Origin: Burkholderia savannae
GTDB lineage: Bacteria; Pseudomonadota; Gammaproteobacteria; Burkholderiales; Burkholderiaceae
Assembly: GCF_001524445.2 (NCBI RefSeq)
Contig: NZ_CP013417.1
Location: forward strand, 3,348,001 to 3,412,000
Reading direction: 5' to 3'
DNA: 64,000 bases
The translations under genes were made by a program, and so were the position numbers. Below are positions 16,779-46,573 of the stretch, piece after piece; position 1 is the first letter of the stretch, and each line of letters begins with the position of its first letter. The notes under the pieces were generated by a model. The model was not told where the DNA came from. It searched no databases and saw nothing but the letters and a program-made list of their open reading frames with translations.

Positions 16779-16817
16779 GGCGGCAGCGGCGGCGTGACGA
16801 CACCTGGTTGACGGTCG

Positions 16818-16838
16818 CATCCGCGACAGTCGCGGATG
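16818..16838. promoter_or_regulatory. Perfect 10-bp inverted repeat upstream of the glycosyltransferase
   Basis: CATCCGCGAC-A-GTCGCGGATG, a nearly uninterrupted palindrome 40 bases before the glycosyltransferase start. On the minus strand a TATAGC box lies just upstream, so the palindrome could overlap a transcription start as an operator. Alternatively it may be a leader hairpin. Confidence 0.45.
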
Positions 16839-16926
16839 TACGCTATACACGTTCAAGTGTCGTCGTTCCGTGGCGCGCGGTCTGTGCGTTCCGTCGCACA
16901 ACGCGGCGCACAACGCAGCGCACAAG

Positions 16927-16972: not shown

Positions 16973-18262
16973 TCAGCGGCCGTGGCTCACCGACCAGATC
17001 AGATAGAACGACTCGGCGGTCGGCAGGATCTGCGCGAGCATCCGGTTGAAGCGCGCGGCGGGCGCGGTGCCCACGTACACGACGTCGAGCGGCTTCATGT
17101 CGAACTCGGTCGCGAGCATCAGCGCGTCCACCTGCGTCATATCGAGGCGGAACACTTCGGGCTTGTTGTGCTCGGGCGCGTAGTTGACCTTCTTCAGGCC
17201 TTCCTGCAGTCCGCTTTGCACGCCGGGTGCCTGAGCAAGCGGCGGATTCGGATGGCGGACCACGATCACCTGGCGCGGATTCGCCCCCGTCGGATCGATG
17301 CTGCCCGCCGCGCTCAATGCATCCGCGAGCGACAACTGCCCCTGGTTCATGTAGACCGTCTGCGGCTTCGGCACCTCGCCCATCACGAACACGCGGTTCT
17401 GCGTGCGATCGGGCACGTGAACGATGTCGTTCGCCTGCAGCACGATGTTCTGGCGCAAGTCGCCGCGATTCAGGATGCGGTTCACGTCGATCGTCATCAC
17501 CTGGTCGCCGCGCGTGACGAGCACGCGTTGCAGATCGGCGTCGGGATTGCCGCCGCCCGCGCGGTTGAGCGCATCGACGACGCGCAGATGCGAACCCGTC
17601 AGCGACAGTTGGCCCGGGTTCTTCACGTCGCCCGTCACCTGCACGCGCTGACTGCGGTACTGCGTCACGCGCACGTCGATCTGAGGATTCCTGATCTGTT
17701 TATTGAGCCGATGCGACAGCAGCGCGGCGATCTGCACGGGGCTCATCCCTTCGACACGCACGCGCCCGATCGTCGGAAAGAAGATCGTGCCGTCGGCGGC
17801 GACGCGCTGGCCCGGCGAATCGACCTCGCCCTGCCCGTTCGTGCCGAACGCGCTGACCTGCTGCGGCAGCACGCCGCCCAGGCCGCCCGACGCCTGCAGC
17901 GTGCCGATGTCGGCGAGCGGCGACGTGTCGGTGCCCGTGCCGTTACTGCCGCCGCGCGTGAGTTCGGGGTGATCCCATACGACGATGCCGAGTACGTCGT
18001 CCGGGCCGACGCGATAGTCGGCGGGCGCGGCGGGCAGGCTCTGCGCGATCCCCGCTTCCTTCGCGCGCGTGTCGGCCTCGTCGGCCTGCTTGAGCGTGTA
18101 GACGAGCTGCGGCGTAATCAGCTTGACGTCGTACACCGCCGAATCCGTCGGTGCGCTCAGATTGTCGTTCATGCGGCTCGAATCGAGCGCCGGCCCGGGG
18201 GCCAGCGCACAGCCCGACAAGGCGGCCGCCGCGGCGGCCGCCCATGCTAGGGGCTTGAACAT
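16973..18262 (-). CDS. Outer-membrane polysaccharide export lipoprotein (Wza/OPX family)
   Basis: A 429-residue lipoprotein with signal peptide and lipobox LSGCA (lipidated Cys near residue 18). It has a poly_export domain starting at YRVGPDDVLGIVVWDHPEL (about residue 84), followed by SLBB repeats (PTIGRVRVEGMSP; VTGDVKNPGQLSLTG; FVMGEVPKPQTVYMNQG). The family forms the octameric outer-membrane channel for exported exopolysaccharide. AAGGAG lies upstream of the ATG at 18260-18262. It follows the initiating transferase by 79 bases. No Wzc tyrosine kinase or Wzy polymerase gene is visible in the window, so the secretion system is incomplete here or uses unrecognised partners. Confidence 0.92.
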   Translation of the reverse strand: MFKPLAWAAAAAAALSGCALAPGPALDSSRMNDNLSAPTDSAVYDVKLITPQLVYTLKQADEADTRAKEAGIAQSLPAAPADYRVGPDDVLGIVVWDHPELTRGGSNGTGTDTSPLADIGTLQASGGLGGVLPQQVSAFGTNGQGEVDSPGQRVAADGTIFFPTIGRVRVEGMSPVQIAALLSHRLNKQIRNPQIDVRVTQYRSQRVQVTGDVKNPGQLSLTGSHLRVVDALNRAGGGNPDADLQRVLVTRGDQVMTIDVNRILNRGDLRQNIVLQANDIVHVPDRTQNRVFVMGEVPKPQTVYMNQGQLSLADALSAAGSIDPTGANPRQVIVVRHPNPPLAQAPGVQSGLQEGLKKVNYAPEHNKPEVFRLDMTQVDALMLATEFDMKPLDVVYVGTAPAARFNRMLAQILPTAESFYLIWSVSHGR

Positions 18263-19756: not shown

Positions 19757-20566
19757 TCAAGCAGCCGAACGCACTGCACCGTGATACGCGGCGACGCGCA
19801 GCGGCCGCCCTTCCGCCGGAACCGGCTGCGGCGCATGCGCTTCGCGCCTCGCCTCGAGAATGAGGCGGTTGAATTCGCCGCGGATCACGCCGTAGCACTC
19901 GCACGCGTGCGCCTCGAGACCCTGCCGGTCGAGCACCGTGATGTGGCCGCGGCGCTGGCGAATGAGTCCCGCCTCCTGCAGCTTGCCCGCCGCTTCCGTG
20001 ATGCCTTCGCGCCGCACGCCCAGCATGTTCGCGATCGTCTGCTGCGTGACGGCGAGCTCGTCGCCTTCGACGCGATCGTGCGCGAGCAGCAGCCAGCGGC
20101 TCAGTTGCTCGCTCACGGAGTGATGCCGGTTGCAGAGCGCGCCGCGCGCGATCTGCGTCATCGCGGCCTGCCAGTAGCGCAGCATCAGCTGGAAGGTGTC
20201 GAGCGAGCGATCGAATTCGCGCCGGAATACCTGAGTCGGCACGCGATACGCGTAGCCGCCGCTGCGCACCTCGATGCGGCCCGATGCGCCGCCGCTGCCG
20301 TAGTCGGCGAGCGTCGACACGCCGACCACGCCTTCGCTGCCGACCGCGGCGACTTCGACCATCGCGCCGTCTTCCATCAGATACAGCACGGACATCATCG
20401 CGGTGGTCGGGAAATACAGGTGGCGCATCGGCTCGTCGGTTTCGCAGAGCAGCTGGGCGCTCTTGATCTTCACGAGCTCGAGGTGCGGCGCGAGCGCGCG
20501 AAGGCTGTCGTCGTCGAGCGAGCCCAGCAGGGCGTTGGCATGAAACCCATTGTTCTGATGAAGCAT
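19757..20566 (-). CDS. CRP/FNR-family transcriptional regulator (copy 1)
   Basis: A 269-residue regulator. An N-terminal cyclic-nucleotide-binding-like beta-barrel (about 15-130; includes HLYFPTTAMMSVLYLMEDG and EVAAVGSEGVVGV) is followed by a long helix. The C-terminal HTH_Crp domain contains LAVTQQTIANMLGVRREGITEAAGKLQEAGLI. The PxTAMMS barrel is of the YeiL/c-di-GMP-effector-like branch rather than true cAMP-binding Crp. The start is the ATG at 20564-20566. It heads the unit that contains the sugar transferase, export gene and glycosyltransferase, behind a sigma-54-type promoter. It is paralogous to the regulator at 21491. A role resembling the B. cenocepacia biofilm regulator BerA is an inference. 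Confidence 0.9.
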   Translation of the reverse strand: MLHQNNGFHANALLGSLDDDSLRALAPHLELVKIKSAQLLCETDEPMRHLYFPTTAMMSVLYLMEDGAMVEVAAVGSEGVVGVSTLADYGSGGASGRIEVRSGGYAYRVPTQVFRREFDRSLDTFQLMLRYWQAAMTQIARGALCNRHHSVSEQLSRWLLLAHDRVEGDELAVTQQTIANMLGVRREGITEAAGKLQEAGLIRQRRGHITVLDRQGLEAHACECYGVIRGEFNRLILEARREAHAPQPVPAEGRPLRVAAYHGAVRSAA

Positions 20567-20732
20567 GTTCGTGTCCCGGTTTGTCGGCGCCGCTCGTTTG
20601 CGGCGCAGGATTCCGTTTCGCAAGACACGGTCACAGCAAGAATCGTATGTTCCTCGGAATCGTGTCGGCGGCCCTTCTGGTCGTCCTCTTACACACTGAC
20701 GCACCACCCTCTTCGCGGGGGTGAAAACCCTT

Positions 20733-21490: not shown

Positions 21491-22285
21491 GTGACCTACC
21501 GCGAATACAAAGAGCCGTCGACGAGGACAGGCGGCATCATCGAGCTGCCGCACCGCACCGACGCCAACCGTTTTCTCGCATCGCTCGGCGTCGCCGAGCG
21601 CGCGACGCTCGCAAGCCATCTGCAGCTCGTGCACGTGAAGTCGGGGCAGGTGCTGTGCGAGCCAGGCACGCCGCTCGAGCACGTCTACCTGCCGGTCACG
21701 ACCGTCATCTCGATTCAGTACGCGTCGTCGGACGGCATGACGCTCGAGATCGCGGAGATCGGCAACGAAGGGATCGTGAGCCCGCAGCTCGTCGGCAGCG
21801 ACGGTGCGACGCCGTGCCGCGTGATAACTTGCCGCGACGGCTTTTCGTATCGGCTCAGCGCGCGCGTGCTGTCGAACCTGCTCGAGGAATCGGCGCAGAT
21901 CCGCCAGGCGATCTTTCGCTGCACGCATCTGCTGATGGCGCAGGCAAAGCAGATCTCGTTCTGCAGCCGGCATCACGTATTGAAGAACCAGCTTTGCCGG
22001 TGGTTCCTGCTCGCGTACGACCGCTCGCGCAGCGTAGAAATCCAGGTCACGCACAGCATGCTCGCGCAAATGCTCGGCGTGCGTCGCGAAACCGTCACCG
22101 ACGCGGCGGGCGACATCCAGAAGATGGGGCTGATCCGCCAGTACCGCAGCTCGATCATCCTCGTCGACCTGCCCGGGCTCGATGCACAGTCGTGCGGATG
22201 CCACACGATCATCCGCGACGAGATGAAGAAGATCCTGTCCGCGCCGACGAGCGCGTCCGGCGCGCTCACCGAATTGCGCAGCTGA
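21491..22285 (+). CDS. CRP/FNR-family transcriptional regulator (copy 2)
   Basis: A 264-residue paralogue of the regulator at 19757. It shares the barrel segment (HVYLPVTTVISIQYASSDG, EIAEIGNEGIV) and the winged helix (VTHSMLAQMLGVRRETVTDAAGDIQKMGLIRQY). It starts at GTG 21491, with AAGGA upstream. It is divergent from copy 1 across the AT-rich control region and is the first gene upstream of the carrier-protein operon (236 bases before it). The two copies probably regulate the locus together or antagonistically. The effector could be c-di-GMP, as for some Burkholderia members, but no binding residues can be confirmed here. Confidence 0.9.
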   Translation: MTYREYKEPSTRTGGIIELPHRTDANRFLASLGVAERATLASHLQLVHVKSGQVLCEPGTPLEHVYLPVTTVISIQYASSDGMTLEIAEIGNEGIVSPQLVGSDGATPCRVITCRDGFSYRLSARVLSNLLEESAQIRQAIFRCTHLLMAQAKQISFCSRHHVLKNQLCRWFLLAYDRSRSVEIQVTHSMLAQMLGVRRETVTDAAGDIQKMGLIRQYRSSIILVDLPGLDAQSCGCHTIIRDEMKKILSAPTSASGALTELRS

Positions 22286-22521: not shown

Positions 22522-22773
22522 ATGAAAAACGAATTGAGAACAATCATCAAGGACGTCGCGCATCTCGAAGCGTCGATCGACCACATCGCGGACAGCGACG
22601 ATCTGTACGAGGCAGGTCTGTCTTCGCTGAACACGATTCAACTGATGCTTGCCATCGAGAAGCACTTCAACATCGAGATTCCGGACGAAATGCTGAATCG
22701 CCAGCTGTTCCAAAGCATCGATTCGCTCGCCGGGGCCGTCACGCAACTGCAGCGCGCCGAGCAATCCGCATGA
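22522..22773 (+). CDS. Acyl carrier protein (aminoacyl carrier protein candidate)
   Basis: An 83-residue free-standing carrier protein. The phosphopantetheine attachment serine is S35 in AGLSSLNTIQLM, preceded by the acidic DSDDLYE loop. The C-terminal helix IEIPDEMLNRQLFQSI fits the four-helix ACP fold. GGAG lies nine bases upstream of the ATG at 22522. Its stop overlaps the next start (ATGA). Because a synthetase-like amino acid:carrier-protein ligase is encoded two genes later, the likely cargo is an aminoacyl rather than a fatty-acyl group. The 236-base upstream gap shows no recognisable promoter. Confidence 0.92.
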   Translation: MKNELRTIIKDVAHLEASIDHIADSDDLYEAGLSSLNTIQLMLAIEKHFNIEIPDEMLNRQLFQSIDSLAGAVTQLQRAEQSA

Positions 22774-23993
22774 AGCGCTTCGACGCCGAAACCGGCAGCG
22801 CACGCGTCGCTGCCGTCGAATCCCCGCTTGCGGAAGATCATACGTTGAACGAAGCAGCGCGCCGAGTCGCGCAAGTCGCCGCGCGCTTCGCCGATGCCGT
22901 CGATCGCGACGCGCGCTTTCCGACCGAAGCGATCGACGCGATGCGCGAAGAACGTCTGCTCGGCGCGCTCGTGCCGACCGAGCTGGGCGGCCGGGGCGCG
23001 TCGCTCACGGCCGTTTCCGCCGCGTGCGGGATCATCGGCCAGGCGTGCTCGTCGGCCGCGATGATCTACGCGATGCATCAGACGCAGGTCGCCAGCATCG
23101 TCGATCATGCGTTGTCGAGCGACTGGCATCGCCGCTTCATCGAGCAGCTCGCCGAGCGCGAATGGCTGCTCGCCTCGGCGACGTCCGAAGAGGAAGTCGG
23201 CGGCAATCTGCGCAACAGCCGCTGCGCGATCGAAGCGGACGGCGACATGTTCACGCTCGCGAAACTCGCGCCGACCATCTCGTACGGCGCGCAGGCCGAC
23301 GCGATCCTCGTCACCGCGCGGCGCGATCGCGACGCGCCCGCCGCCGAGCAGGTGCTCGTCACGCTGCTGAAGGAAAACGCAACCCTCACGCGCCGCAGCG
23401 GCTGGGATACGTTCGGCATGCGCGGCACCTGCAGCGAAGGCTTCGCGCTCGACGCGCGCGGCTATTGCGAGCAGATCTTCCCGGTGCCGTTCGCGCAGAT
23501 CGCCGAGCGGACCATGGTGCCAACGTCGCACATCCTGTGGGCGGCCGTGTGGACCGGCATCGCGAACGACGCGTTCCTGCGCGCGCATCAGTTCTTCCGC
23601 GCGCAGATGCAAAAGCAAGGCGGCACGCTGCCGCCGTCCGGCCGCCGGATCGCCGACGCGCTCGCGCTGCTGCAGGCGATGCAGGCGCGCATCGACGGCG
23701 CGCTGCGCCTGCACGAGCAGAGCGCCGCGCGCTCGTGGTCCGCGTCGATGGCGCAGGCGGCCGAGATCAACACGCTGAAGACTTACGTGTCGACGACCGC
23801 GCTCGACGTGGTCAAGCACGCGACGATGATCTGCGGGATGGCGTCGTACAAGAACGGCACGCCATACACGCTCGGCCGCCACATCCGCGACCTGCATTCG
23901 GCGCCGCTCATGATCAGCAACGATCGCATCGAAGCCAACACGGCGAACCTGCTGCTCGCGTTGCGTCCCGCAACGCTGGAGAGAGAGATTTGA
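22770..23993 (+). CDS. Acyl-CoA dehydrogenase-like flavoprotein
   Basis: A 407-residue protein of the acyl-CoA dehydrogenase fold: an N-terminal helical domain (about 25-135; LLGALVPTELGGRGASLTAVSAACGIIGQACSSAAM), a middle beta domain (about 140-240; LLASATSEEEVGGN), and a C-terminal helical bundle (about 250-390; MICGMASYKNGTPYTLGRHIRDLHSAPLMISND). It overlaps the carrier-protein gene by four bases (ATGA) and runs five bases short of the ligase start. In such a setting the enzyme more likely acts on a carrier-protein thioester than on CoA. Whether it oxidises the aminoacyl group, or serves another redox step, is inference. The catalytic base was not assigned. Confidence 0.88.
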   Translation: MKRFDAETGSARVAAVESPLAEDHTLNEAARRVAQVAARFADAVDRDARFPTEAIDAMREERLLGALVPTELGGRGASLTAVSAACGIIGQACSSAAMIYAMHQTQVASIVDHALSSDWHRRFIEQLAEREWLLASATSEEEVGGNLRNSRCAIEADGDMFTLAKLAPTISYGAQADAILVTARRDRDAPAAEQVLVTLLKENATLTRRSGWDTFGMRGTCSEGFALDARGYCEQIFPVPFAQIAERTMVPTSHILWAAVWTGIANDAFLRAHQFFRAQMQKQGGTLPPSGRRIADALALLQAMQARIDGALRLHEQSAARSWSASMAQAAEINTLKTYVSTTALDVVKHATMICGMASYKNGTPYTLGRHIRDLHSAPLMISNDRIEANTANLLLALRPATLEREI

Positions 23994-23998
23994 ACGAC

Positions 23999-24964
23999 AT
24001 GACCAACCCTTCCGCGCGCGCGGCCGAAGCGGCTCGGGCGCCCATCGATCGCGGCGGCGTGAACCCGTTGCGCGACGAACTCGTCGAAGCGGGGCTGCTG
24101 ATCTCGACGGGCATTCAGGGCCTGTTCGGCCGCAGCGAGAAGTTCGAACGCGTCGTCGACGCGCTCGACGGCTACATCACGCGCCTTGGCGCCGACCAGC
24201 ACGCGGAAGTGCTGCGCTTCCCGCCCGCGATGAGCCGCCCCGAGTTCGAGCGCAGCGAATATCTGAAGAGCTTCCCGCAACTCGCGGGCACCGTGCACAG
24301 TTTTTGCGGCAACGAGCACGATCACCAGCGCGTGCTGCAATGCCTCGATCGCGGCGACGACTGGACCGAGAATCAGAAGCCGACCTATGTCGTGATGACG
24401 CCCGCCGCATGCTACCCGGTCTATCCGGTCGTCGCGCAGCGCGGCGCGCTGCCCGCCGACGGCCGGATCGTCGATGCGTTCTCGTACTGCTTCCGCCACG
24501 AGCCGTCGCTCGATCCGACGCGCATGCAATTGTTCCGGATGCGCGAATACATCCGGATCGGCACACCCGAGCAGATCCTCGCGTTCCGCCAGGACTGGAT
24601 CGAGCGCGGCACGCGAATGATTGACGCGCTGCAGTTGCCGAACAGCATCGATCTCGCGAACGATCCGTTTTTCGGCCGCGGCGGCAAGATCGTCGCGAGC
24701 AGCCAGCGCGATCAGAACCTGAAGTTCGAACTCCTGATTCCGATCGAATACGACGGCCGCCTGACCGCGTGCCTGAGCTTCAACTACCACATGGACCACT
24801 TCGGCCTGCTGTGGGGCATCAAGACGGCCGAGGCCGCGGTCGCGCACACGGGCTGCGTGGGCTTCGGCCTCGAGCGCCTGACGCTCGGCCTCTTCAGGCA
24901 TCACGGCTTCGATCCGGACGCATGGCCGCAAGCGGTACGCGACGTACTGTGGGGACATCGATGA
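23999..24964 (+). CDS. Amino acid:[carrier protein] ligase (atypical seryl-tRNA-synthetase-like)
   Basis: A 321-residue class II synthetase core without the tRNA-binding coiled coil of SerRS. Members activate a small amino acid (glycine or alanine in studied cases) with ATP and load it onto the phosphopantetheine of a carrier protein. Motif 2 is FRMREYIRIG and motif 3 is GFGLERLTLGLF. C138, E183 and C286 match in kind and spacing the Cys-Glu-Cys zinc site of characterised ligases. The start is the ATG at 23999, five bases after the dehydrogenase stop. The end overlaps the DUF1839 gene (ATGA). The partner is almost certainly the carrier protein at 22522. Confidence 0.92.
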   Translation: MTNPSARAAEAARAPIDRGGVNPLRDELVEAGLLISTGIQGLFGRSEKFERVVDALDGYITRLGADQHAEVLRFPPAMSRPEFERSEYLKSFPQLAGTVHSFCGNEHDHQRVLQCLDRGDDWTENQKPTYVVMTPAACYPVYPVVAQRGALPADGRIVDAFSYCFRHEPSLDPTRMQLFRMREYIRIGTPEQILAFRQDWIERGTRMIDALQLPNSIDLANDPFFGRGGKIVASSQRDQNLKFELLIPIEYDGRLTACLSFNYHMDHFGLLWGIKTAEAAVAHTGCVGFGLERLTLGLFRHHGFDPDAWPQAVRDVLWGHR

Positions 24965-26049
24965 GCAGCATCCTGCTCGACGCGCCGGCGAACGGCGCGT
25001 CGCTCGAAGAAATCTTCACCGACATCCGGCATCGCGTGCGGCACTACCGCCCGCACGCGCTGCACGGGCCGCAGATGGTCTGGAAGCAAACCAACTGCTA
25101 CGTCGATCTGTGGATCGAGGTGCTCGGCTGGTGGGGGCTCAATCCGTACGCGGCGCTGCCGTTTACGATCACGCTCGACTTCGAGGGCGACCAGTTCTCG
25201 TTCTTCAAGTTTCCGTTCGAGGATCTCGAGACGCTGTACGGAATCGTCGTGCAGGAGCACGCGATCTTCGAACCCGTCGACGCGCACGTCGAGAACCAGG
25301 TCGCGCGCGGCAACCTGATGCTCGTCGAAGTCGACGCATGGTATCTGCCCGACACGCGCGGCAACAGCTATCAGACCGAGCACACGAAAACGACGATCGG
25401 CATCGACGCGATCGATCGCGAACGCCGCCGCGTCGGCTACTTCCACAACAGCGGCTATTACCTCGCGGAAGGCATCGATTACGACGGCCTGTTCGGCAAG
25501 CACGGGCCGACGCAGCTCGTGCCGTACGTCGAATGCGCGAAGCGGCGATTCAAGCCGCTCGAGGAACGCGAGCTGTGCGCAGCGTCGCTCGGCCTCCTCG
25601 CGCGCCACCTGAAGCGCCGGCCCGCATCGAACCCGATCGCCGCGTTCCGCGAGCAGCTCGCGCGCGACGCGAAGACGATCGCGTCGCGGCCGATCTCGTA
25701 CTTCCACGTGTATTCGTTCAATACGCTGCGCCAGCTCGGCGCGAACTTCGAGCTGTTCGGCCGCTATCTGCGCTGGCTCGAGGCGAGCGGCTGCAACGGC
25801 GCGTTCGACACGCTCGTCGCCGCGTGCGACACGATCGCGTCCGAATCGATGGTGCTCGAATTCCGCCTCGCGCGTGCGAGCGCACGCGGCAAGGAGGAAC
25901 GCGGCGAGAGCAGTCTCGACATTCTCGAGCGCGCGTACGCCTCGCTCGTCGACGGCGTCGCGCGAATCGCGCCGCCCGGCAAGGCCGAGCCGAATCCGCC
26001 GTTCGGCACGCTGTACGTGCCGCCGAGGCCCGTCTCCACGGTCAGATGA
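24961..26049 (+). CDS. DUF1839 family protein
   Basis: A 362-residue soluble protein of a family of unknown function that is repeatedly found beside synthetase-like carrier-protein ligases. Visible features are HGPQMVWKQTNCYVDLWIEVLGWWG near the N-terminus and conserved aromatics and acids (FEGDQFSFFKFPFEDLETLYG, VEVDAWYLPDTRGNSYQTEHTKT). The C-terminal half is helical. It starts at ATG 24961, overlapping the ligase stop, and ends overlapping the GH2 start (ATGA). A role as the aminoacyl transferase that moves the amino acid from the carrier protein to its acceptor is a reasonable guess from position only. Confidence 0.85.
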   Translation: MSSILLDAPANGASLEEIFTDIRHRVRHYRPHALHGPQMVWKQTNCYVDLWIEVLGWWGLNPYAALPFTITLDFEGDQFSFFKFPFEDLETLYGIVVQEHAIFEPVDAHVENQVARGNLMLVEVDAWYLPDTRGNSYQTEHTKTTIGIDAIDRERRRVGYFHNSGYYLAEGIDYDGLFGKHGPTQLVPYVECAKRRFKPLEERELCAASLGLLARHLKRRPASNPIAAFREQLARDAKTIASRPISYFHVYSFNTLRQLGANFELFGRYLRWLEASGCNGAFDTLVAACDTIASESMVLEFRLARASARGKEERGESSLDILERAYASLVDGVARIAPPGKAEPNPPFGTLYVPPRPVSTVR

Positions 26050-28565
26050 AATCCGCGCCGGATCGCGTGGCGCGCAGCGCCGCTCAATGGACGTTGATCG
26101 CGACGCCCGCCGGCGCGATCGCGCGGCCGAGCGAGCTCTCCGAAGCCGGCTGGTGCGCCGCGCCCGTGCCCGGCACGGTCGCGCAGGCGCTTGCCGGCGC
26201 GCGGCGCTTCGATCCGGCGCATCCGTATCCGCTCGGCGATAGCGACTACTGGTATCGAACGACGCTGCACGGCGCGGGGCCGCGCATCGTCCGGCTGAAC
26301 GGGCTCGCGACGATCGCCGAGGTCTGGCTCGACGACGCGCTGCTGCTCTGCTCGGACAACATGTACGTCGCGCACGACATCGCCGTGACGCTCGGCGGTG
26401 CGAATCGTCTTGCCCTCTGCTTCCGCTCGCTCGATCGCCACCTCGCCGCGCATGCGCCGCGGGGCCGCGCGCGCTGGCGCACGCGCCTCGTCGACACGCC
26501 CGCGCTGCGCGGCGTGCGCACGACGTTTCTCGGCCGGATGCCGGGCTGGTTCCCGGCGATCGAACCGATCGGGCCGTGGCGCTCGATCGAGATCGTGAAT
26601 CCGGCCGGCGCGCCGACGATCGTGCGCGACACGCTGCGCGCGACGCTAGACGGCCGCGACGGCGTGCTCGACGCCACGCTCGAATTCGCCGCGCCGCTCG
26701 CGCAAACGATGCGTGCGCGGCTCGTGTGCGGCGCGCACGCGGCGACGCTCGAGACAACCGGCCCGCGCACCGCGCGCGCAACGCTCAGGATTCCGAACGT
26801 CACGCCGTGGTGGCCGCACACGCATGGCGAACCGAAGTTGTACGACGTCGGCGTCGAAATCGGCGACGCGACGATTCCGCTCGCGCGAACCGGCTTTCGC
26901 ACGATCGCCGTCGAACGCGGCGGCGACGGCCGAGGCTTCGCGCTGTCGGTCAACGGCACGCCCGTCTTCGCGCGCGGCGCATGCTGGACGAGCGCCGACC
27001 CGCTCGGCCTGCAGGCCGATCCGGCCGCCTACCGCCGCGCGCTCACGCTCGCGCGCGACGCCGGCTGCAACATGATCCGCGTCGGCGGCACGATGACCTA
27101 CGAAGCCGACGCGTTCTACGCGCTGTGCGACGAGCTGGGGCTCCTCGTCTGGCAGGACTTCATGCTCGCGAACTTCGACTATCCGAGCGCCGATCCGCGT
27201 TTTGCCGAATCGCTGAAGCGTGAGGCCGAGCAGTTTCTCGGCCGGCATGCGGCGCGGCCGTCGATCGCGGTGCTGTGCGGCGGCAGTGAGATCGCGCAAC
27301 AGGCGGCGATGGTCGGACTTGCGCCCGACGAGCGCCGCGTGCCCGCGACCGAGCAACTGCTTGCCGAATTGTGCGCCACGCATCGGCCCGATGCGATCTA
27401 CGTCGCCGATTCGCCGCACGGCGGCGTGCTGCCGTTCGCGCCGCGCGAAGGCGTCGCGCACTACTACGGCGTCGGCGCGTACCTGCGGCCGCCTGAAGAC
27501 GCGCGCCGCGCCGGCGTGCGCTTCGCGAGCGAGTGCCTCGCGTTCGCGAACGTGCCGTGCGACGCAACCCTCGCGTCGATCGGCTCGCCCGCCGCGCACG
27601 AGCCCAGCTGGAAACGCGCAGTGCCGCGCGATCCGGGCGCGCCGTGGGATTTCGACGACGTGCGCGATCACTATCTGCGCACGCTGTACGGCGTCGAGCC
27701 CGCGCGTCTGCGCAGCTGCGACCCGGCGCGCTATCTCACGCTGTCGCGCGCGATCGTCGCCGACCTCATCGCGCAGACGCTGTCGGAGTGGCGGCGCGTC
27801 GGCTCGTCGTGCGCGGGCGCGCTCGTCTGGCAGTTCCAGGATGTGATGCCGGGCGCCGGCTGGGGCCTCGTCGACGCGCACGGACGGCCGAAATCCGCGT
27901 GGCATGCGCTGAAGCGCGTGTCGCAGCCGCGGCAGATCCTGCTCACCGACGAGGGACTCAACGGCCTCGACGTGCATGTGCTCAACGACGCGCCGACGCC
28001 GCTCGACGCGCGCATCGAGCTCGTCGCGCTGCGCGACGGGAAGACGCCGATCGCGCGCGCCGGCCGCACGTTGCGCATCGACGCGCACGCGGGCGAATGC
28101 GTGAACTCCGCCGACCTGCTGGGTCGTTTCTTCGACTTCACGTACGCATACCGTTTCGGCCCGCGCGAGCACGACGTCGTGATCGCATCGCTGCACGCGG
28201 CCGACGGCGCGCTGCTTTCGCAAGCGTTCCACTTCCCGGAACGCACCGCGCCGACCGTGTTCGAGCGCGCCGACATCGGCCTCGAGGCGAGCGCCGCCTA
28301 TCGCGACGGCCGCTGGTGCGTCGACGTGCAGACGCGTACGTTCGCGCGCTACGTGCACGTGTCCGCGCCCGGGCTGCTGCCCGACATCGACTGGTTTCAT
28401 CTCGCGCCGGGTGCCGCCGCGCGGATCGAGCTCGCCGCCGACCCTCACTCTCCCCATTCCCATGACAATCCGCCCGACGCGTCCGCCGCCCTCGCTGCGC
28501 CGCCCGCGATCGAGGTGCGAGCACTGAATTCCAACAAGACCATTCGCCCGAGGATAGAAAATTGA
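26046..28565 (+). CDS. Glycoside hydrolase family 2 protein (beta-mannosidase-like)
   Basis: An 839-residue GH2 protein of beta-mannosidase-like length: an N-terminal jelly-roll sugar-binding domain (WYRTTLHGAGPRIVRLNGLATIAEVWLDD), an Ig-like domain, and a TIM barrel (VNGTPVFARGACWTSADPL; MIRVGGTMTYEADAFYALCDELGLLVWQDFM). Candidate catalytic acids are E415 (LCGGSEIAQQ, where the usual Asn before the acid/base Glu is Ser) and E496 (RFASECLAF, nucleophile position). There is no signal peptide, so it would act in the cytosol. It overlaps both neighbours by four bases. It may trim or proof-read the mannose-containing repeat unit, or have been recruited for another reaction. Confidence 0.85.
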   Translation: MKSAPDRVARSAAQWTLIATPAGAIARPSELSEAGWCAAPVPGTVAQALAGARRFDPAHPYPLGDSDYWYRTTLHGAGPRIVRLNGLATIAEVWLDDALLLCSDNMYVAHDIAVTLGGANRLALCFRSLDRHLAAHAPRGRARWRTRLVDTPALRGVRTTFLGRMPGWFPAIEPIGPWRSIEIVNPAGAPTIVRDTLRATLDGRDGVLDATLEFAAPLAQTMRARLVCGAHAATLETTGPRTARATLRIPNVTPWWPHTHGEPKLYDVGVEIGDATIPLARTGFRTIAVERGGDGRGFALSVNGTPVFARGACWTSADPLGLQADPAAYRRALTLARDAGCNMIRVGGTMTYEADAFYALCDELGLLVWQDFMLANFDYPSADPRFAESLKREAEQFLGRHAARPSIAVLCGGSEIAQQAAMVGLAPDERRVPATEQLLAELCATHRPDAIYVADSPHGGVLPFAPREGVAHYYGVGAYLRPPEDARRAGVRFASECLAFANVPCDATLASIGSPAAHEPSWKRAVPRDPGAPWDFDDVRDHYLRTLYGVEPARLRSCDPARYLTLSRAIVADLIAQTLSEWRRVGSSCAGALVWQFQDVMPGAGWGLVDAHGRPKSAWHALKRVSQPRQILLTDEGLNGLDVHVLNDAPTPLDARIELVALRDGKTPIARAGRTLRIDAHAGECVNSADLLGRFFDFTYAYRFGPREHDVVIASLHAADGALLSQAFHFPERTAPTVFERADIGLEASAAYRDGRWCVDVQTRTFARYVHVSAPGLLPDIDWFHLAPGAAARIELAADPHSPHSHDNPPDASAALAAPPAIEVRALNSNKTIRPRIEN

Positions 28566-30514
28566 GACCAGTCAGATTCGACGATTGCTTAGGATGGCTG
28601 CATGAGGGACGCACGCGGCGCGGCGTCCTCATCTGCGAGGCGCTCGGGCACGAAGCGCTGTGGACGCACAAAGTGGTCCGCGCGCTCGCCGAGCGCCTCG
28701 CCGAAGACGGCATGTGGGTGTTGCGCTTTCATTACCCGTGCGCGGGCGATTCGGCGGGCGACGATCTCGCGCCGGGCCGGCTGCCCGCGAGCGTCGCGAG
28801 CGTGCGCCGCGCGCTCGCCGTGCTGCGCGATCAAGCGAGCGTCGATGGCGTCACGCTCGTCGGCCTGCGCGCGGGCGCCGCGTTCGCGATGCTCGCGCTC
28901 GCGGGCGACGACGCGCCCGCCGTCGATGCGTTCGTCGGGCTCGCGCCCGTGGTGCGCGGCCGCGCGTATCTGCGTGAGTTGTCGATCGTCCAAAAGCGCT
29001 GGCTGGATACAACGCCGCCCGCGATCCGCGAGCAGCATCACGTGGAACCGTGGCTCAACATTCTCGGCCATCGCTACCCGGCCGATTTCGTCGCCGATCT
29101 GAAGCAAGTCGATTTGAGCAACGCGGTCGCGACGACGATCGCGCTGCCGCGCGCCGCGTTGCTCGTCGACACCGACTATGGGGACAGTCCCGCGCTGCGC
29201 GCCGCGCTCGTCGCGCGCGGCGTGTCGACGCACATCGAATCGTTCCCGGGGTGGCCGAACGCGCTGCAGGAAGGCGCGCGCTCGCGCGTGCCGCACGCGG
29301 CGCTCGAATCCGTCGCGCGCTGGATCGGCCTCGGCGAACAGGCGGCGGCAGCGGAACCGATCGCGGCCGGCCACGCCGATCGCGCGGCCGCCGCGCATGC
29401 GCACGACGACGCGATCACCATTGCATCGCGCGCCGCGCGCAAGCCCGACATCGCGCACGCTCGCGACGCGCGTCATCATGCGCCCGCGCCGAATGCCGCG
29501 TCACCCATCACGTTCGCGTTCGACGGCATCGCCGAAACGCTCGTCCACATCGGACCGAAGCGGCTCGTCGGCACGCTGTGCGAGCCCGTCGCGCCCGCGC
29601 GCGCCGGCACGCCTTGCCTGCTGATCGCGAACACCGCGGCGAACCCGCGAAGCGCGGACGGCCGCATCGGCGTGCGTCTCGCGCGCACGCTTGCGCAGCG
29701 CGGCATCGCGTCGCTGCGGATCGACATCGAAGGCATCGGCGACAGCGGCGCGCACGCGCCGGACGATCAGGCCGAAGTGCTGTATTCCGATCCGGCCATC
29801 GCGGACGTCGCCACGGCCGTCGACTGGCTCGGCGCGCGCTGCCGGCGGCAGGTCGTCGCGTTCGGCGTGTGCTCGGGCGCGTTCGCCGCGCTGCATGCGG
29901 CCGCGCACGCGCGCGCGGCGGCCGGCGTGATCGCGGTCAATCTGCCGCGCTTCATCTGGCCGCGCGGGCTCACGATCGCCGAGGCGCGCAAACAGCAGAC
30001 GAATTCCGCGCGCGGCTATCTCGCATCGATGCGGGACTGGAGCAAATGGCGCCGTCTGCTGCGCGAGGGCCGCGATCTGCGCCCGGTGCTGAGCGCGCTG
30101 CGCCGCCACGTCACCGCGCGCCTGAGCGCGCCGGCGGGACGCCTCGCGGAGCGGCTCGGCCGCCGGCCGAAACCCGACACGCCGCGCGGCCTGATCAGGG
30201 CGCTCACCGACCGGAGCATCCACACGATGCTCGTCTACGGCGATTTCGATCCGGGCGTCGACGAGTTCACCCGCTACTTCGGCTCGCCGCGCCGCGCATT
30301 CAAGCGCTCGCCGCTCGTGAGCGTCGAGATGATCCGCTTGCTCGATCATTCGGTGTACGGCACGTCGGCCGCCGAGATGGTCATCGAGCTCTGCATCGAC
30401 ACGCTGACGGGCTGGGGAGACAGGACGCGCGGGCCGCAATTGCGACCCCGGCCGACGGGCGCACGGCACGGCGCGCCGCACGCGGCTTCCGCCGATGCCG
30501 CCGCGTCGCCCTGA
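28562..30514 (+). CDS. Tandem alpha/beta hydrolase (fusion of exosortase-A-type hydrolases 2 and 1)
   Basis: A 650-residue protein with two alpha/beta hydrolase domains. The first (about 1-260) has GLRAG at 101-105, with Arg where the nucleophile should be. The second (about 315-620) has GVCSG at 435-439, with Cys437 as nucleophile. A low-complexity Ala/His linker (about 258-312) joins them. The pair resembles the exosortase A system-associated hydrolases 2 and 1, usually separate genes in exopolysaccharide loci. It starts at TTG 28562, overlapping the GH2 stop (TTGA) with a GAGG upstream. The C-terminal about 30 residues are Arg/Pro/Ala-rich. It may remove a wrongly loaded acyl or aminoacyl group. 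Confidence 0.82.
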   Translation: MRPVRFDDCLGWLHEGRTRRGVLICEALGHEALWTHKVVRALAERLAEDGMWVLRFHYPCAGDSAGDDLAPGRLPASVASVRRALAVLRDQASVDGVTLVGLRAGAAFAMLALAGDDAPAVDAFVGLAPVVRGRAYLRELSIVQKRWLDTTPPAIREQHHVEPWLNILGHRYPADFVADLKQVDLSNAVATTIALPRAALLVDTDYGDSPALRAALVARGVSTHIESFPGWPNALQEGARSRVPHAALESVARWIGLGEQAAAAEPIAAGHADRAAAAHAHDDAITIASRAARKPDIAHARDARHHAPAPNAASPITFAFDGIAETLVHIGPKRLVGTLCEPVAPARAGTPCLLIANTAANPRSADGRIGVRLARTLAQRGIASLRIDIEGIGDSGAHAPDDQAEVLYSDPAIADVATAVDWLGARCRRQVVAFGVCSGAFAALHAAAHARAAAGVIAVNLPRFIWPRGLTIAEARKQQTNSARGYLASMRDWSKWRRLLREGRDLRPVLSALRRHVTARLSAPAGRLAERLGRRPKPDTPRGLIRALTDRSIHTMLVYGDFDPGVDEFTRYFGSPRRAFKRSPLVSVEMIRLLDHSVYGTSAAEMVIELCIDTLTGWGDRTRGPQLRPRPTGARHGAPHAASADAAASP

Positions 30515-30563: not shown

Positions 30564-31952
<1,389 letters not shown>

Positions 31953-33416: not shown

Positions 33417-34706
33417 TCAGATGCGCGCGAGCGTGTCGCTTCGGGAAGCGTCGAGCGGCGAGGTCGGCGCGGCGCGCTCGACGGACGCGCCGTCGTCCGT
33501 CGCGACGCCCGATGCGAGCGGCTCGGCCTGCGCCGAGGCGACGATCGAGGCGTTGTGCGCCGGCGCGGCGCCGGAAGTCTCGCCCAATTCCGCTTGCAGC
33601 GCGGCGTAGCCTTCGAGCACGAAACGCGAGAATGCCGAGCGGAATCGCGCGGCGCTGAAACGCTGCGCGTTTGCGCGGCACGCGTGCGGATCGAACGTAC
33701 CCGCGGGCATTGCCTCGAACCGGTCGATTGCATCGATCAGCGCGTCGCACGTCTGCTTCGCATAGAAAAGCCCTGTCGGCACCGGGCCTGCCGCGCGCAC
33801 CGATTCGCACACGCCGCCCTTGCCGTACGCGATCACGGGCGTGCCGCATGCCTGCGCCTCGACGGGCGAAATGCCGAAATCCTCTTCCGCCGCGAACACG
33901 AACGCCTTCGCGCGCTGCAGATGATCGTGCAGCACGTCGAACGACTGATAGCCGAGCAGCGTGACGTTCGGCCCCGCGAGCGCGCGGATCTTCTCTGCCT
34001 CGGGGCCGTCGCCGATCACGACGAGCCGGCGCGACGGCATGTGCGAGAACGCCTCGACGATCAGGTCGATGCGCTTGTAGGGCACGAGGCGCGATGCGGT
34101 CAGATAGAAATCTTCCTTCGTGTCGCGCAGCGCGAGATGATCGACGTCGACGGGCGGATAGATGACCGTCGCGTCGCGGCGATACGTCTTACGAATGCGG
34201 CGCGCGACGAAGTGCGAGTTCGCCGCGAGCAGATCGACGCCGTTCGCGGAGCGCGCATCCCAATTGCGGATGTAATGCAGCAGCGTGCGCGCGAGCGCGG
34301 ATTTCACGCCGCGCGCGAGCCCCGCCTCGTTCAGATACTGATGCTGCAGATCCCACGCATAGCGAACGGGCGAATGCACGTAGCTCGCGTGCAGTTGGTC
34401 CGGGCCGTTCAGCACGCCCTTCGCGACCGCATACGAACTCGACAGGATCAGGTCGTAGCCGGACAGATCGAACTGCTCGATCGCGAGCGGAAAGAGCGGC
34501 AGGTAGCTGCGGTACTTGCTGCGCGCGAACGGCAATTTCTGGATGAACGAAGTGTGTACCGGCCGGCCACGCAGGCACGAGCGGTCGTCGAGAAAATCGA
34601 CGAGGCTGTAGATGTCGGCCTGCGGAAAACAGTCGATCATCTGCGCAAGCACGCGCTCCGCGCCGCCATACACCACCAGCCAGTCGTGAACGATTGCTAC
34701 CTTCAA
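33417..34706 (-). CDS. Glycosyltransferase, GT4 family
   Basis: A 429-residue GT-B enzyme. The N-terminal acceptor domain begins MKVAIVHDWLVVYGGAERV, with YVHSPVRYAWDLQHQY. The C-terminal donor domain has YLTASRLVPYKRIDLIVEAF and the signature EDFGISPVEAQACGTPVIAYGKGG. The last about 50 residues are an Ala/Ser-rich tail. It starts at the ATG at 34704-34706. The VHDWLVVYGGAE type resembles mannosyltransferases of biofilm polysaccharide loci. It is the first gene of a two-gene unit with the PAP2 phosphatase, divergent from the acetyltransferase gene. Confidence 0.88.
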   Translation of the reverse strand: MKVAIVHDWLVVYGGAERVLAQMIDCFPQADIYSLVDFLDDRSCLRGRPVHTSFIQKLPFARSKYRSYLPLFPLAIEQFDLSGYDLILSSSYAVAKGVLNGPDQLHASYVHSPVRYAWDLQHQYLNEAGLARGVKSALARTLLHYIRNWDARSANGVDLLAANSHFVARRIRKTYRRDATVIYPPVDVDHLALRDTKEDFYLTASRLVPYKRIDLIVEAFSHMPSRRLVVIGDGPEAEKIRALAGPNVTLLGYQSFDVLHDHLQRAKAFVFAAEEDFGISPVEAQACGTPVIAYGKGGVCESVRAAGPVPTGLFYAKQTCDALIDAIDRFEAMPAGTFDPHACRANAQRFSAARFRSAFSRFVLEGYAALQAELGETSGAAPAHNASIVASAQAEPLASGVATDDGASVERAAPTSPLDASRSDTLARI

Positions 34707-35081: not shown

Positions 35082-35708
35082 ATGGACTGGACATGCTGCG
35101 AATTCAGGTATCTGAATTCGAACGAGCTTTACATGATCCTTCGCGCACGCAATGCAGTCCTCGTCGTCGAGGATGCGCACACGTATCTCGACATCGACGG
35201 CAAGGACGAATTCGCTATCCACGTGTTCGCAACGGACAAGCGCGGCGAACGGCCGTCGATCGCCGCCTACGCGCGTCTCTTGCCGGGTGACGACATCGAT
35301 CCCGAAACGACGATCGACAAGATCCTGACGAGCGCCGCGCATCGTGACGACCGCACGATCGACGCGTTGATCGAACACGTGCTGGCCGCCGCGCACGCGC
35401 GCTGGCCCGATGCGCCGGTGCGCGTGCAGGTGAGCGCGCACCGCGAAGACTTTTACAGCCGCTTCGGCTTCCGCAAGGTCGACGGGCCGTATCTCGAGCA
35501 CGGCGCGCCGTACATCGGCATGCTGCGCCCGGCGAGCAGCCCGTCGAAGGCCGTGCGCGATCTGCTCGATCGCGTCGGCACCGCGACGAGCGCGGGCGCC
35601 GTTGCAACGGCTGCACCGCGCACGACGCGCCAAGCCGACGCCGACTCCACCAACGAGCGCTACGCGCTCGCCGGCCGCCTTCCGGCCGATTCCGGAATGA
35701 ACCGATGA
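35082..35708 (+). CDS. GNAT acetyltransferase, ElaA-like
   Basis: A 208-residue GNAT protein whose order of motifs matches ElaA: MDWTCCEFRYLNSNELYMILRARNAVLVVEDAHTYLDIDGKD, YARLLPGDD, and the closing EDFYSRFGFRKVDGPYLEHGAPYIGM. The C-terminal about 45 residues are a Thr/Ala-rich extension. The ATG at 35082 has GAGGA upstream. Its stop overlaps the start of the next gene (ATGA), tying it to GDP-mannose synthesis. It could acetylate the sugar or polymer, but the ElaA family has no firmly known substrate. Confidence 0.85.
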   Translation: MDWTCCEFRYLNSNELYMILRARNAVLVVEDAHTYLDIDGKDEFAIHVFATDKRGERPSIAAYARLLPGDDIDPETTIDKILTSAAHRDDRTIDALIEHVLAAAHARWPDAPVRVQVSAHREDFYSRFGFRKVDGPYLEHGAPYIGMLRPASSPSKAVRDLLDRVGTATSAGAVATAAPRTTRQADADSTNERYALAGRLPADSGMNR

Positions 35709-37297
35709 CCGATCTCGCTACGAACCCGACTTCCGCCGCGCCGCAACCGGCGCCGCCGCGCATCCTGCCCGTGATTCTCGCGGGCGGCTCCGGCACGCGC
35801 CTCTGGCCGCTGTCGCGCGAACACCATCCGAAACAGCTGATCGACCTGATCGCCGACGAATCGCCGCTGTCCTCGACCGCGCGCCGCCTGACGGGCATTG
35901 CAAATGCCGAGCTCGCCGACACGCTGCTGCTCGTCTGCGGCGAACAGCATCGCTTCACAAGCGCCGCGCAAGTGAGCGCCCGCGGGCTGCGCGCGCGCAT
36001 CCTGCTCGAGCCGGCCGCGCGCAACACGGCGCCCGCGCTCACGCTCGCCGCGCTCGAAGCGCTCGCGCATCACGGCGATCCGGTGCTCGCGGCGATGCCC
36101 GCCGATCATGCGGTGTCCGACACGCGCGCGTTCCAAGATGCGGTCGCGCAAGCGGCGCGCTACGCGCAAGACGGCGCGATCGTCACGCTCGGCGTGCTGC
36201 CGCGCCGCGCCGAGACGGGCTACGGCTACATCAAGGTGGGCGCGCCGCTCGCGGATTCGCACGGTGCCTCAAGCGGCCACGCGATCGACAGCTTCGTCGA
36301 AAAGCCGCATCAGGAGCTCGCGCAGCAATACCTGCAATCCGGCGATTATTGGTGGAACAGCGGCATCTTCGTCGTGCGCGCGTCGACATGGCTCGCCGCG
36401 ATCCGCGCGCTGCAGCCGGACATGCATGCGGCTTGCGAAGCCGCGTGGCGCAACGGCACGAACGACGGCCAGTTCTTCAAGGCGGACGCGGCCGAATTCG
36501 CCGCATGCCCGTCCGACTCGATCGATTACGCGGTGATGGAGCGCCTGACGGGCGCGCGCGCGCTCGGCATCCCGGGCGTGATCGTGCCGCTCGCGGCGGG
36601 CTGGTCGGACGTCGGCTCGTGGGACGCGATCTGGGAACTGCTGCCGAAGGACGAAGCAGGCAACGTCGCGCGCGGCGAGGTGCTGTTCGAAGGCACCGAA
36701 GACAGCTTCGCGCGCTCCGAAGGCCGGCTCATCGCGTGCGTCGGGCTGAAGGACGTGGTCGTCGTCGAAACGCCGGATGCGGTGCTCGTCGCGAACAAGC
36801 ATCGCGTGCAGGACGTGAAGACCGTCGTCGCGCGCCTGAAGTCCGGCCAGCACGAGCAGGTGCGGGACCACCGCAAGGTGCAGCGCCCGTGGGGCTACTA
36901 CGATTCGATCGATCGCGGCGAGCGCTTCCAGGTGAAGCGCATCGTCGTCGATCCGGGCAAGCAGCTGTCGCTGCAGATGCACTATCATCGCGCCGAGCAC
37001 TGGATCGTCGTGCGCGGCACCGCGAAGGTCACGCGCGGCGACGAGACGTTCCTCCTGAGCGAGAACGAATCGACGTACATCGAGGTCGGCGCGGTTCACC
37101 GCTTGGAGAATCCGGGCAAGATCGCGCTCGAGATCATCGAAGTCCAATCGGGCGACTATCTCGGCGAAGACGACATCGTTCGCTTCGACGACCGTTACGG
37201 CCGCGCGAGCGCGCAACCCGCGCCCGAAGCGGCGAAGCCGGCCGCAGCCGAGCTCGCGCCCACCGCCGAGCCCGTCCGCGCGCTCGGCGAGCACTGA
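35705..37297 (+). CDS. manC: Mannose-1-phosphate guanylyltransferase / mannose-6-phosphate isomerase
   Basis: A 530-residue bifunctional enzyme that makes GDP-mannose. The N-terminal nucleotidyltransferase has ILAGGSGTRLWPLSREHHPKQ and the FVEKP motif (SFVEKPHQE). The C-terminal cupin isomerase domain has QRPWGYYDSIDRGERFQVKRI, LQMHYHRAEHWIVVRGTAKVT and the NESTYIEVGAVHRLENPG segment with metal-binding residues. The ATG at 35705 overlaps the acetyltransferase stop. It implies that the exported polymer contains mannose or a sugar derived from GDP-mannose. Other names in use are cpsB/xanB/algA-type. Confidence 0.94.
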   Translation: MTDLATNPTSAAPQPAPPRILPVILAGGSGTRLWPLSREHHPKQLIDLIADESPLSSTARRLTGIANAELADTLLLVCGEQHRFTSAAQVSARGLRARILLEPAARNTAPALTLAALEALAHHGDPVLAAMPADHAVSDTRAFQDAVAQAARYAQDGAIVTLGVLPRRAETGYGYIKVGAPLADSHGASSGHAIDSFVEKPHQELAQQYLQSGDYWWNSGIFVVRASTWLAAIRALQPDMHAACEAAWRNGTNDGQFFKADAAEFAACPSDSIDYAVMERLTGARALGIPGVIVPLAAGWSDVGSWDAIWELLPKDEAGNVARGEVLFEGTEDSFARSEGRLIACVGLKDVVVVETPDAVLVANKHRVQDVKTVVARLKSGQHEQVRDHRKVQRPWGYYDSIDRGERFQVKRIVVDPGKQLSLQMHYHRAEHWIVVRGTAKVTRGDETFLLSENESTYIEVGAVHRLENPGKIALEIIEVQSGDYLGEDDIVRFDDRYGRASAQPAPEAAKPAAAELAPTAEPVRALGEH

Positions 37298-46572: not shown

Positions 46573-46573
46573 G

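What the first reader, a model, noticed from the sequence alone, without database searches (positions are those of the whole stretch)
22522..30514. Aminoacyl-carrier-protein module embedded in an exopolysaccharide operon
Six genes in strict overlap encode a carrier protein, an acyl-CoA dehydrogenase-like flavoprotein, a synthetase-like amino acid:carrier-protein ligase, DUF1839, a GH2 protein and a double hydrolase. They sit between polysaccharide initiation/export genes and glycosyltransferase/flippase genes. Established: such ligases load small amino acids onto carrier proteins. Inference: this locus makes an aminoacylated (perhaps oxidised) sugar unit or polymer, a pathway I do not know to be described.
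Basis: partly seen in the sequence, partly recalled or inferred. Interest (0 to 1): 0.82.

Follow-up and report, generated by a model that had tools for sequence, protein, structure and literature searches.

The report
Carrier-protein aminoacylation cassette in biofilm-polysaccharide cluster
Inside a known biofilm-sugar gene cluster of a Burkholderia lies a conserved set of genes that appears to load an amino acid onto a carrier protein, oxidise it and attach it to a sugar, a decoration that was predicted in print in 2010 and for which I found no later test.

The parts
22522..22773 (+). Carrier protein (becF by order): phosphopantetheine attachment site, Ser35 in DLYxxGLSS
   Evidence: PF00550 45.7 bits and NF005480 150.8 bits; Ser35 invariant in 11 aligned orthologues; motif in 77 of 77 carrier proteins of L047-L126
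22770..23993 (+). Acyl-CoA-dehydrogenase-fold flavoprotein (becG): probably oxidises the carrier-bound amino acid; Ile382 aligns with the glutamate of the YEGT motif of 8i4p
   Evidence: PF02771/PF08028/PF00441; alignments to PDB chains incl. DnmZ; family alignment of 12
23999..24964 (+). Amino acid:[carrier protein] ligase (becH by order), class II SerRS-like; Cys138, Glu183, Cys286 align with residues recalled as the zinc ligands of Bll0957
   Evidence: NF005479 553.1 bits; PDB 4h2w/3mey; residues invariant in 11 aligned
24961..26049 (+). DUF1839 (becI by order): predicted carrier-protein-dependent aminoacyl transferase, papain-like core plus helical C-terminal part; Cys46, His141, His162, Asn163
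26046..28565 (+). GH2-like glycosidase (becJ by order); Glu415 and Glu496 as likely catalytic pair
   Evidence: PF22666 42.0 bits; both Glu invariant in 11 aligned
28562..30514 (+). Double alpha/beta hydrolase (becK by order): N-terminal half has GLRAG where a Ser nucleophile would be expected, C-terminal half has Cys437 (GVCSG)
   Evidence: TIGR03100 97 bits and TIGR03101 78.2 bits, both below cut-off; Cys437 invariant in 7 aligned
21491..22285 (+). CRP/FNR-type regulator (becE by order), upstream of the cassette on the same strand
   Evidence: PF13545; conserved in 10 of 10 same-genus loci fetched
19757..20707 (-). CRP/FNR-type regulator, BerA/Bcam1349-like (becD by order)
   Evidence: PF13545; 10 of 10 same-genus loci fetched; 74.9% identity of becD to BCAM1349 stated in PMC5507470
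18342..19904 (-). Undecaprenyl-phosphate glucose phosphotransferase, WcaJ type
   Evidence: TIGR03023 514.6 bits, cut-off 410.75
16973..18262 (-). Wza-type polysaccharide export protein (becB by order)
   Evidence: NF011658 and TIGR03028, both below cut-off
15534..16925 (-). Glycosyltransferase becA; published forward primer site at 16755-16778 with 1 mismatch, reverse primer site at its end, exact
   Evidence: for the short reverse primer, chance matches with up to 2 mismatches were seen in 36 of 100 shuffles; primers in PMC5507470; glycosyltransferase families below cut-off
30564..31952 (-). Sigma-54-type regulator, BerB-like (becL by order)
   Evidence: reading frame; beside the cassette in 9 of 10 same-genus loci, the tenth cut by its contig end; assignment by reading and literature, no family search run on it
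33417..34706 (-). Glycosyltransferase-like protein of the same cluster
   Evidence: reading frame; strong homologues in 4 of 10 same-genus loci (L148-L151); assignment by reading, no family search run on it
35705..37297 (+). ManC-type mannose-1-phosphate guanylyltransferase (becP by order)
   Evidence: reading frame; in 7 of 10 same-genus loci; assignment by reading and literature, no family search run on it
38603..39871 (+). Flippase-like membrane protein
   Evidence: reading frame; assignment by reading, no family search run on it

Best explanation
The cassette makes and delivers a modified aminoacyl group to a sugar. Step 1 (family shown by sequence; activity known for relatives): the ligase activates a small amino acid with ATP and loads it on the phosphopantetheine of the carrier protein. 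Step 2 (inferred): the flavoprotein oxidises the aminoacyl thioester while it is on the carrier, more likely at nitrogen or the alpha carbon than by classical alpha,beta-desaturation. Step 3 (inferred from fold and conserved Cys/His): DUF1839 takes the group onto its cysteine and passes it by a ping-pong mechanism to an amine or hydroxyl of a sugar, as CcbD does with an amine. Step 4 (weakest): the GH2-like enzyme and the Cys-type hydrolase trim, edit or recycle the acylated glycan or its precursor. In Burkholderia the acceptor is most likely the lipid-linked repeat of the Bec/Bep biofilm polysaccharide, because the cassette sits between the regulators and EPS genes in every same-genus locus I fetched.
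Against: No substrate, product or linkage is shown. The CP gene becF was in the mutant library but was not a hit, and transposon insertions in an operon can be polar. DUF1839 has no BtrH_N Pfam hit and profile-profile comparison with BtrH_N relatives was not significant (probability 0.8%, E 0.07). The cassette lies without annotated EPS genes in Azospirillum, Mycetohabitans and Caballeronia records, and WcaJ or Wza homologues were in the flanks of only 10 of 80 loci. The reported Bep repeat has Gal, Glc and Man, no amino sugar and no acyl group, though it was isolated in alkali. The flavoprotein profile fits a dehydrogenase (87.4 bits) slightly better than DnmZ (77.7 bits), so the kind of oxidation is open.
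Confidence: 0.58

Rival explanations
1. The cassette makes a small diffusible aminoacyl-sugar or amino-acid-derived metabolite (lincosamide-like in logic), and its place beside the EPS genes in Burkholderia reflects shared regulation, not polymer decoration. The GH2 enzyme would release the product from a glycoside precursor.
For: Cassette without annotated EPS genes in three records (the plasmid gene tables are incomplete); in Agrobacterium sp. AGB01 an ABC-transporter-like gene lies downstream; closest folds are natural-product enzymes; the GH2 proteins show no strongly hydrophobic N-terminus (75 proteins, highest 12-residue mean hydropathy 1.7), though no signal-peptide predictor was run and the other parts were not tested.
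Against: Linkage to EPS regulators and initiation genes in 10 of 10 same-genus loci fetched; flippase-hydrolase single ORF in R. johnstonii; hydrolase-1-type genes over cut-off lie near exosortase-type ligases in 5 of 6 genomes.
Confidence: 0.22
2. A form of the best explanation: the acceptor is an OH group and the product is an aminoacyl ester on the polysaccharide, a Gram-negative counterpart of teichoic-acid D-alanylation, rather than an amide on an amino sugar.
For: The reported Bep repeat has no amino sugar and was extracted in 0.3 M NaOH and measured in NaOD, which would hydrolyse esters (general knowledge).
Against: The best structural match, CcbD, makes an amide; the 2010 prediction also names an amino group.
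Confidence: 0.3
3. The flavoprotein works on the sugar, not on the amino acid: like DnmZ it oxidises an amino sugar, and the amino acid is transferred unmodified.
For: DnmZ, an amino-sugar nitrososynthase (role recalled), is the second-best profile hit (77.7 bits).
Against: The flavoprotein is kept beside the ligase in 7 of 7 fetched loci without DUF1839 and GH2; a short-chain acyl-CoA dehydrogenase scores higher (87.4 bits).
Confidence: 0.15
4. DUF1839 is a hydrolase or peptidase of the papain superfamily that processes cell-wall glycans, not a transferase.
For: PMC10318531 places DUF1839 in the papain-like superfamily and suggests a role at the cell wall in processing glycans (passages).
Confidence: 0.08

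Closest known systems
becA-R biofilm exopolysaccharide cluster (B. pseudomallei group) and bep/BCAM1330-1350 (B. cenocepacia)
   Same: Same kinds of genes in the published order; becA primer sites present with 1 and 0 mismatches; synteny in 10 of 10 same-genus loci fetched.
   Different: Published work treats it as an EPS cluster; in the passages I read the CP, ligase and DUF1839 genes have no assigned function.
Amino acid:[carrier protein] ligases such as Bll0957 (Mocibob 2010, recalled; paper not held)
   Same: Same family and same Cys/Glu/Cys residues.
   Different: The 7 fetched ligase loci without DUF1839, one with a ligase close to Bll0957, also lack GH2; this one has the full cassette.
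CcbD/LmbD lincosamide condensing enzymes, CtaG, AziU3, BtrH family
   Different: 12-14% identity to CcbD and AziU3; no BtrH_N Pfam hit; profile comparison not significant; acceptor unknown; sits with EPS genes and a GH2.
Iyer and Aravind 2010 note in proof (Atu2574 as sugar-amide ligase)
   Same: Predicts this pathway from neighbourhoods: ACP, SerRS paralogue, redox enzyme, uncharacterised ORF, glycosidase, liposaccharide genes.
   Different: In the text I read: no structure, no cassette counts, no link to bec/Bep or to the alkaline-extraction point.
Dlt D-alanylation of teichoic acids (recalled)
   Same: Logic: ligase, carrier protein, amino acid onto an envelope polymer.
   Different: Uses an AMP-forming ligase of another fold, DltB and DltD (recalled); apart from weak below-cut-off DltC matches of the carrier protein, none of the six proteins was assigned to those families.
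Exosortase-A EPS clusters with TIGR03098/03100/03101
   Same: A hydrolase-1 gene over cut-off lies within 3 kb of a TIGR03098 ligase in 5 of 6 such genomes among 200.
   Different: Different ligase fold; the hydrolases here are below cut-off and fused.

Membership tests
Amino acid:[carrier protein] ligase (NF005479) | Score over curated equivalog cut-off | tested here: met
   553.1 bits, cut-off 357
Amino acid:[carrier protein] ligase (NF005479) | Zinc-binding Cys/Glu/Cys of Bll0957 (role recalled) | tested here: met
   Cys138, Glu183, Cys286 align with them and are invariant in 11
Amino acid:[carrier protein] ligase (NF005479) | Charges its carrier protein with a small amino acid | not testable with these tools
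   needs enzyme assay
Carrier protein (PP-binding, NF005480) | Phosphopantetheine Ser and family score | tested here: met
BtrH/CcbD-type carrier-protein acyltransferase | Two-part fold, papain-like core plus C-terminal helices | tested here: met
BtrH/CcbD-type carrier-protein acyltransferase | Conserved catalytic Cys and His | tested here: met
   Cys 241, His 243, second His 244 of 244; the one stretch aligned to BtrH_N proteins puts His141 on their invariant His. Geometry not checked
BtrH/CcbD-type carrier-protein acyltransferase | Hit to the BtrH_N Pfam model (PF14399) | tested here: not met
   no hit at E 0.01
BtrH/CcbD-type carrier-protein acyltransferase | Remote sequence homology to BtrH_N proteins | tested here: inconclusive
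   hhalign probability 0.8%, E 0.07, 7 BtrH_N proteins
BtrH/CcbD-type carrier-protein acyltransferase | Transfers an acyl group from CP to an acceptor | not testable with these tools
   needs assay
Acyl-CoA dehydrogenase | Pfam N- and C-terminal domains | tested here: met
   PF02771, PF08028, PF00441 over cut-off; PF02770 below
Acyl-CoA dehydrogenase | Catalytic Glu in the C-terminal YEGT motif (role recalled) | tested here: not met
   Ile382 aligns with the Glu of 8i4p; motif RDxxSAxLMI(S/N)NDRI. Some dehydrogenases keep the base elsewhere (recalled; 7p98 has YTGT), so activity is not excluded
Glycoside hydrolase family 2 | GH2 Pfam domain over cut-off | tested here: met
   PF22666 42.0 bits, cut-off 27; PF00703 below cut-off
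Glycoside hydrolase family 2 | Two catalytic Glu (positions by recalled motif) | tested here: met
   Glu415 and Glu496 invariant in 11; motif patterns in 75 and 71 of 75; Ser stands where Asn is usual before the acid/base (recalled)
Exosortase-associated hydrolases 1 and 2 (TIGR03100, TIGR03101) | Score over curated cut-off | tested here: not met
   97 against 168.45 and 78.2 against 202.75
becA-R cluster | Gene content and order of Bp1026b_I2907-2927 | tested here: met
   order of becE to becL and annotated becA, becD, becE, becG, becL, becP kinds agree; becA primer sites; other names given by order; becM, becN, becO, becQ, becR not checked

The most novel reading that the evidence does not exclude
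A c-di-GMP-controlled Gram-negative biofilm polysaccharide (Bec/Bep) carries a flavin-oxidised aminoacyl group, loaded by a tRNA-synthetase relative and attached by a CcbD-type transferase; it was missed because the polymer was isolated in alkali. The same five-gene cassette would be a portable glycan-aminoacylation device used on different acceptors across Proteobacteria.
Probability: 0.33. Interest if true: 0.82.

Novelty: new variant of a known kind. Interest (0 to 1): 0.62.

Why it matters
Carrier-protein ligases of this type have been known since 2010, and I found no paper that gives them a pathway. If DUF1839 is their transferase, the pathway gets its missing step, a biofilm matrix polymer of an important genus gains a charged or redox-modified substituent that its reported structure lacks, and a family of at least 2627 proteins (E at or below 1e-5) gets a testable function. 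The decisive experiments are simple: charge, oxidise, transfer, and re-extract the polymer without base.

Tried and rejected
PDB sequence search with DUF1839 alone found nothing up to E 10 and as a profile only two weak unrelated chains, best E 0.075. Profile comparison with BtrH_N proteins was not significant. Counting WcaJ-type genes in whole genomes (30 of the 80 loci, chosen by me for spread) could not be mapped to the loci except for two complete chromosomes, taking C1 as the chromosome: nearest about 190 kb from the R. johnstonii locus and about 72 kb from the Mesorhizobium CP034448 locus; I used flank homology instead. The idea that the cassette is generally embedded among EPS genes was rejected: 10 of 80 loci have WcaJ/Wza homologues in flanks of up to 10 kb, and it lies alone even in two other genera of Burkholderiaceae. 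The idea that the ligase implies DUF1839 was rejected: 12 of 28 ligase genomes lack it. DUF1839 is not always part of a cassette: L129 shows no ligase in the annotated stretch, L075 has only DUF1839 and GH2, and genomes G313 and G383 have a second copy, in G383 about 5 kb from the full cassette.

Counts to read with care. strict patterns, all loci then held, truncated ones included: flavoprotein 89 of 122, GH2 acid/base 116 and nucleophile 63 of 120, hydrolase 34 of 53, ligase 111 of 123, CP 68 of 77. One search repeated this on loci L047-L126 with looser patterns and length filters for flavoprotein, ligase and GH2: flavoprotein C-terminal motif 67 of 76 (I saw 6 of the 9 misses; they differ at one place and none has Glu at the position discussed) and W-x-x-GMR 76 of 76; GH2 75 and 71 of 75 (4 misses not inspected); ligase PAACYP 77, R.RE 71, H.CVGFG 71 of 79 (misses not inspected); CP 77 of 77; hydrolase G.C.(GAS) 53 of 53. 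The six exceptions to the five-gene order are L060, L061, L063 (no GH2 found), L075, and L105 and L116 (short loci lacking CP, or CP and flavoprotein, at the contig edge).

That I found no later test rests, searches of an open-access library; most subscription papers are not held. Mocibob 2010 is recalled and known here through that note.
Full report
WHERE IT IS. The window is G000:C1:3348001-3412000 of a 7.43 Mb, three-contig genome. The becA gene carries the two published becA primer sites, one with a single mismatch, the shorter one exact (primers from PMC5507470); with the gene order this places the genome in the Burkholderia pseudomallei group. No tool named the species. The finding is the becF-becK stretch of the becA-R biofilm exopolysaccharide cluster. 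The names becH to becK are given by order between becE and becL; PMC5507470 itself annotates becG as an acyl-CoA dehydrogenase and gives becF as I2915.

THE SIX GENES. Coordinates, overlaps and family scores are in the observation check. The carrier protein has the serine site. The ligase is over the cut-off of the amino acid--[acyl-carrier-protein] ligase family and its profile aligns over positions 22-310 with solved Bll0957 ligases, with the Cys/Glu/Cys set that I recall as zinc ligands. The flavoprotein has the acyl-CoA dehydrogenase fold but Ile382 where 8i4p has its YEGT glutamate, and a W-D-x-x-G-M-R motif that DnmZ shares; its profile scores 87.4 bits against a dehydrogenase and 77.7 against DnmZ, so sequence alone does not decide between dehydrogenase and monooxygenase. 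The GH2-like protein keeps two glutamates. The last gene has two alpha/beta hydrolase halves; in the window only the second shows a nucleophile at the expected place, a cysteine.

A FIXED CASSETTE. DUF1839 occurs in 34 of 37 same-genus genomes, in 0 of 24 from other families of the order and in 16 of 398 drawn across the phylum. Of 80 loci with named records, 74 have CP, flavoprotein, ligase, DUF1839 and GH2 in this order on one strand, and 53 have a double hydrolase in the flanks. All 16 DUF1839 genomes have the ligase over cut-off; 12 further genomes have the ligase without DUF1839, and 16 more have only a weak ligase-like match. I fetched 7 of the 12: all 7 have the flavoprotein next to the ligase, 6 have a carrier-protein match, divergently placed, and no match to DUF1839 or GH2 was found; one ligase is close to Bll0957 by eye. 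So the flavoprotein belongs with the aminoacyl-CP core, and DUF1839/GH2 form an added branch.

EPS LINK. In all 10 same-genus loci fetched (L148-L157, chosen by me from the 33 other positives), CP, flavoprotein, ligase and DUF1839 lie beside the two CRP-type regulators and WcaJ; GH2 and BerB follow in 9, the tenth ending at its contig edge; the double hydrolase is adjacent in 2. Two members of other genera of the family (L158, L159) have BerA with Wza or WcaJ nearby. In R. johnstonii two glycosyltransferases lie downstream of the cassette, and one ORF holds a flippase domain and two hydrolase domains. By contrast A. brasilense, Mycetohabitans and Caballeronia records show the cassette among genes without annotated EPS function (these gene tables are incomplete). 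Hydrolases of the TIGR03100 type over cut-off were found in 6 of 200 genomes, 5 of them within 3 kb of a TIGR03098 ligase; all 7 DUF1839 genomes in that sample have a weaker match (55-80 bits), 5 of 7 within 7 kb of DUF1839.

GENETICS AND CHEMISTRY IN PRINT. In the B. pseudomallei screen all bec genes but becF, becM and becO were hits; becF was in the library, the other two were not; the becG mutant had biofilm 0.84 against 1.25 and smooth colonies. Polarity is possible. The B. cenocepacia Bep repeat is a neutral Gal-Glc-Gal-Man tetrasaccharide, but it was extracted in 0.3 M NaOH and measured in 0.3 M NaOD, so an ester-linked amino acid would have been lost; the structure neither supports nor excludes one. 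It does speak against an amide on an amino sugar of this polymer.

WHAT WAS ALREADY SAID. In 2010 Iyer and Aravind, in a note in proof, read the neighbourhood of these ligases as a system that might ligate an amino acid to an amino group of a cell-surface sugar derivative, with the uncharacterised ORF Atu2574 as ligase and the redox enzyme as a probable monooxygenase. By gene order Atu2574 would be DUF1839; I did not fetch it. My work agrees with them, adds the structural evidence, the core/branch split and the alkali point, and leaves open whether the acceptor is the polymer or something else. I found no later test (searches named in Tried and rejected).

VERDICT. Observation confirmed; interpretation partly supported; a carrier-protein aminoacyl transfer to a sugar is the best reading, with probability about 0.58.

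Noticed in passing
window 46213-47053 (-): Two small neighbouring genes look like precursor peptides with a nitrile-hydratase-like leader (one ends ...YLFTCC); the second has a weak NHase_alpha match below cut-off, the first none. NHLP-type RiPP is a recalled comparison.
   Followed up: no
L102:14779-18087 (Rhizobium johnstonii 3841): One ORF holds a polysaccharide flippase domain followed by two alpha/beta hydrolase domains, which would tie the hydrolases to glycan export.
   Followed up: partly
L129:13938-14924; second copies in G313 and G383 (L031, L032, L159): A solo DUF1839 on a conjugative Rhizobium plasmid beside a ParB-domain gene, and second DUF1839 copies beside ManC homologues; the G383 copy is about 5 kb from the full cassette, the G313 copy is at a contig edge.
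   Followed up: no
L131-L137: A second type of locus: flavoprotein and ligase, usually with a divergent carrier protein, without DUF1839 or GH2; partners there are not identified.
   Followed up: partly
window about 34.9-35.7 kb (+): An acetyltransferase-like protein (becO by order) precedes ManC; it may decorate the same polymer. Assignment by reading and PMC3584217 (Bcam1341), no search run.
   Followed up: no
16 genomes, such as G137, G172, G090, G180: A distant ligase-like family at 101-175 bits, well below cut-off, recurs in 16 of 398 genomes; not examined.
   Followed up: no
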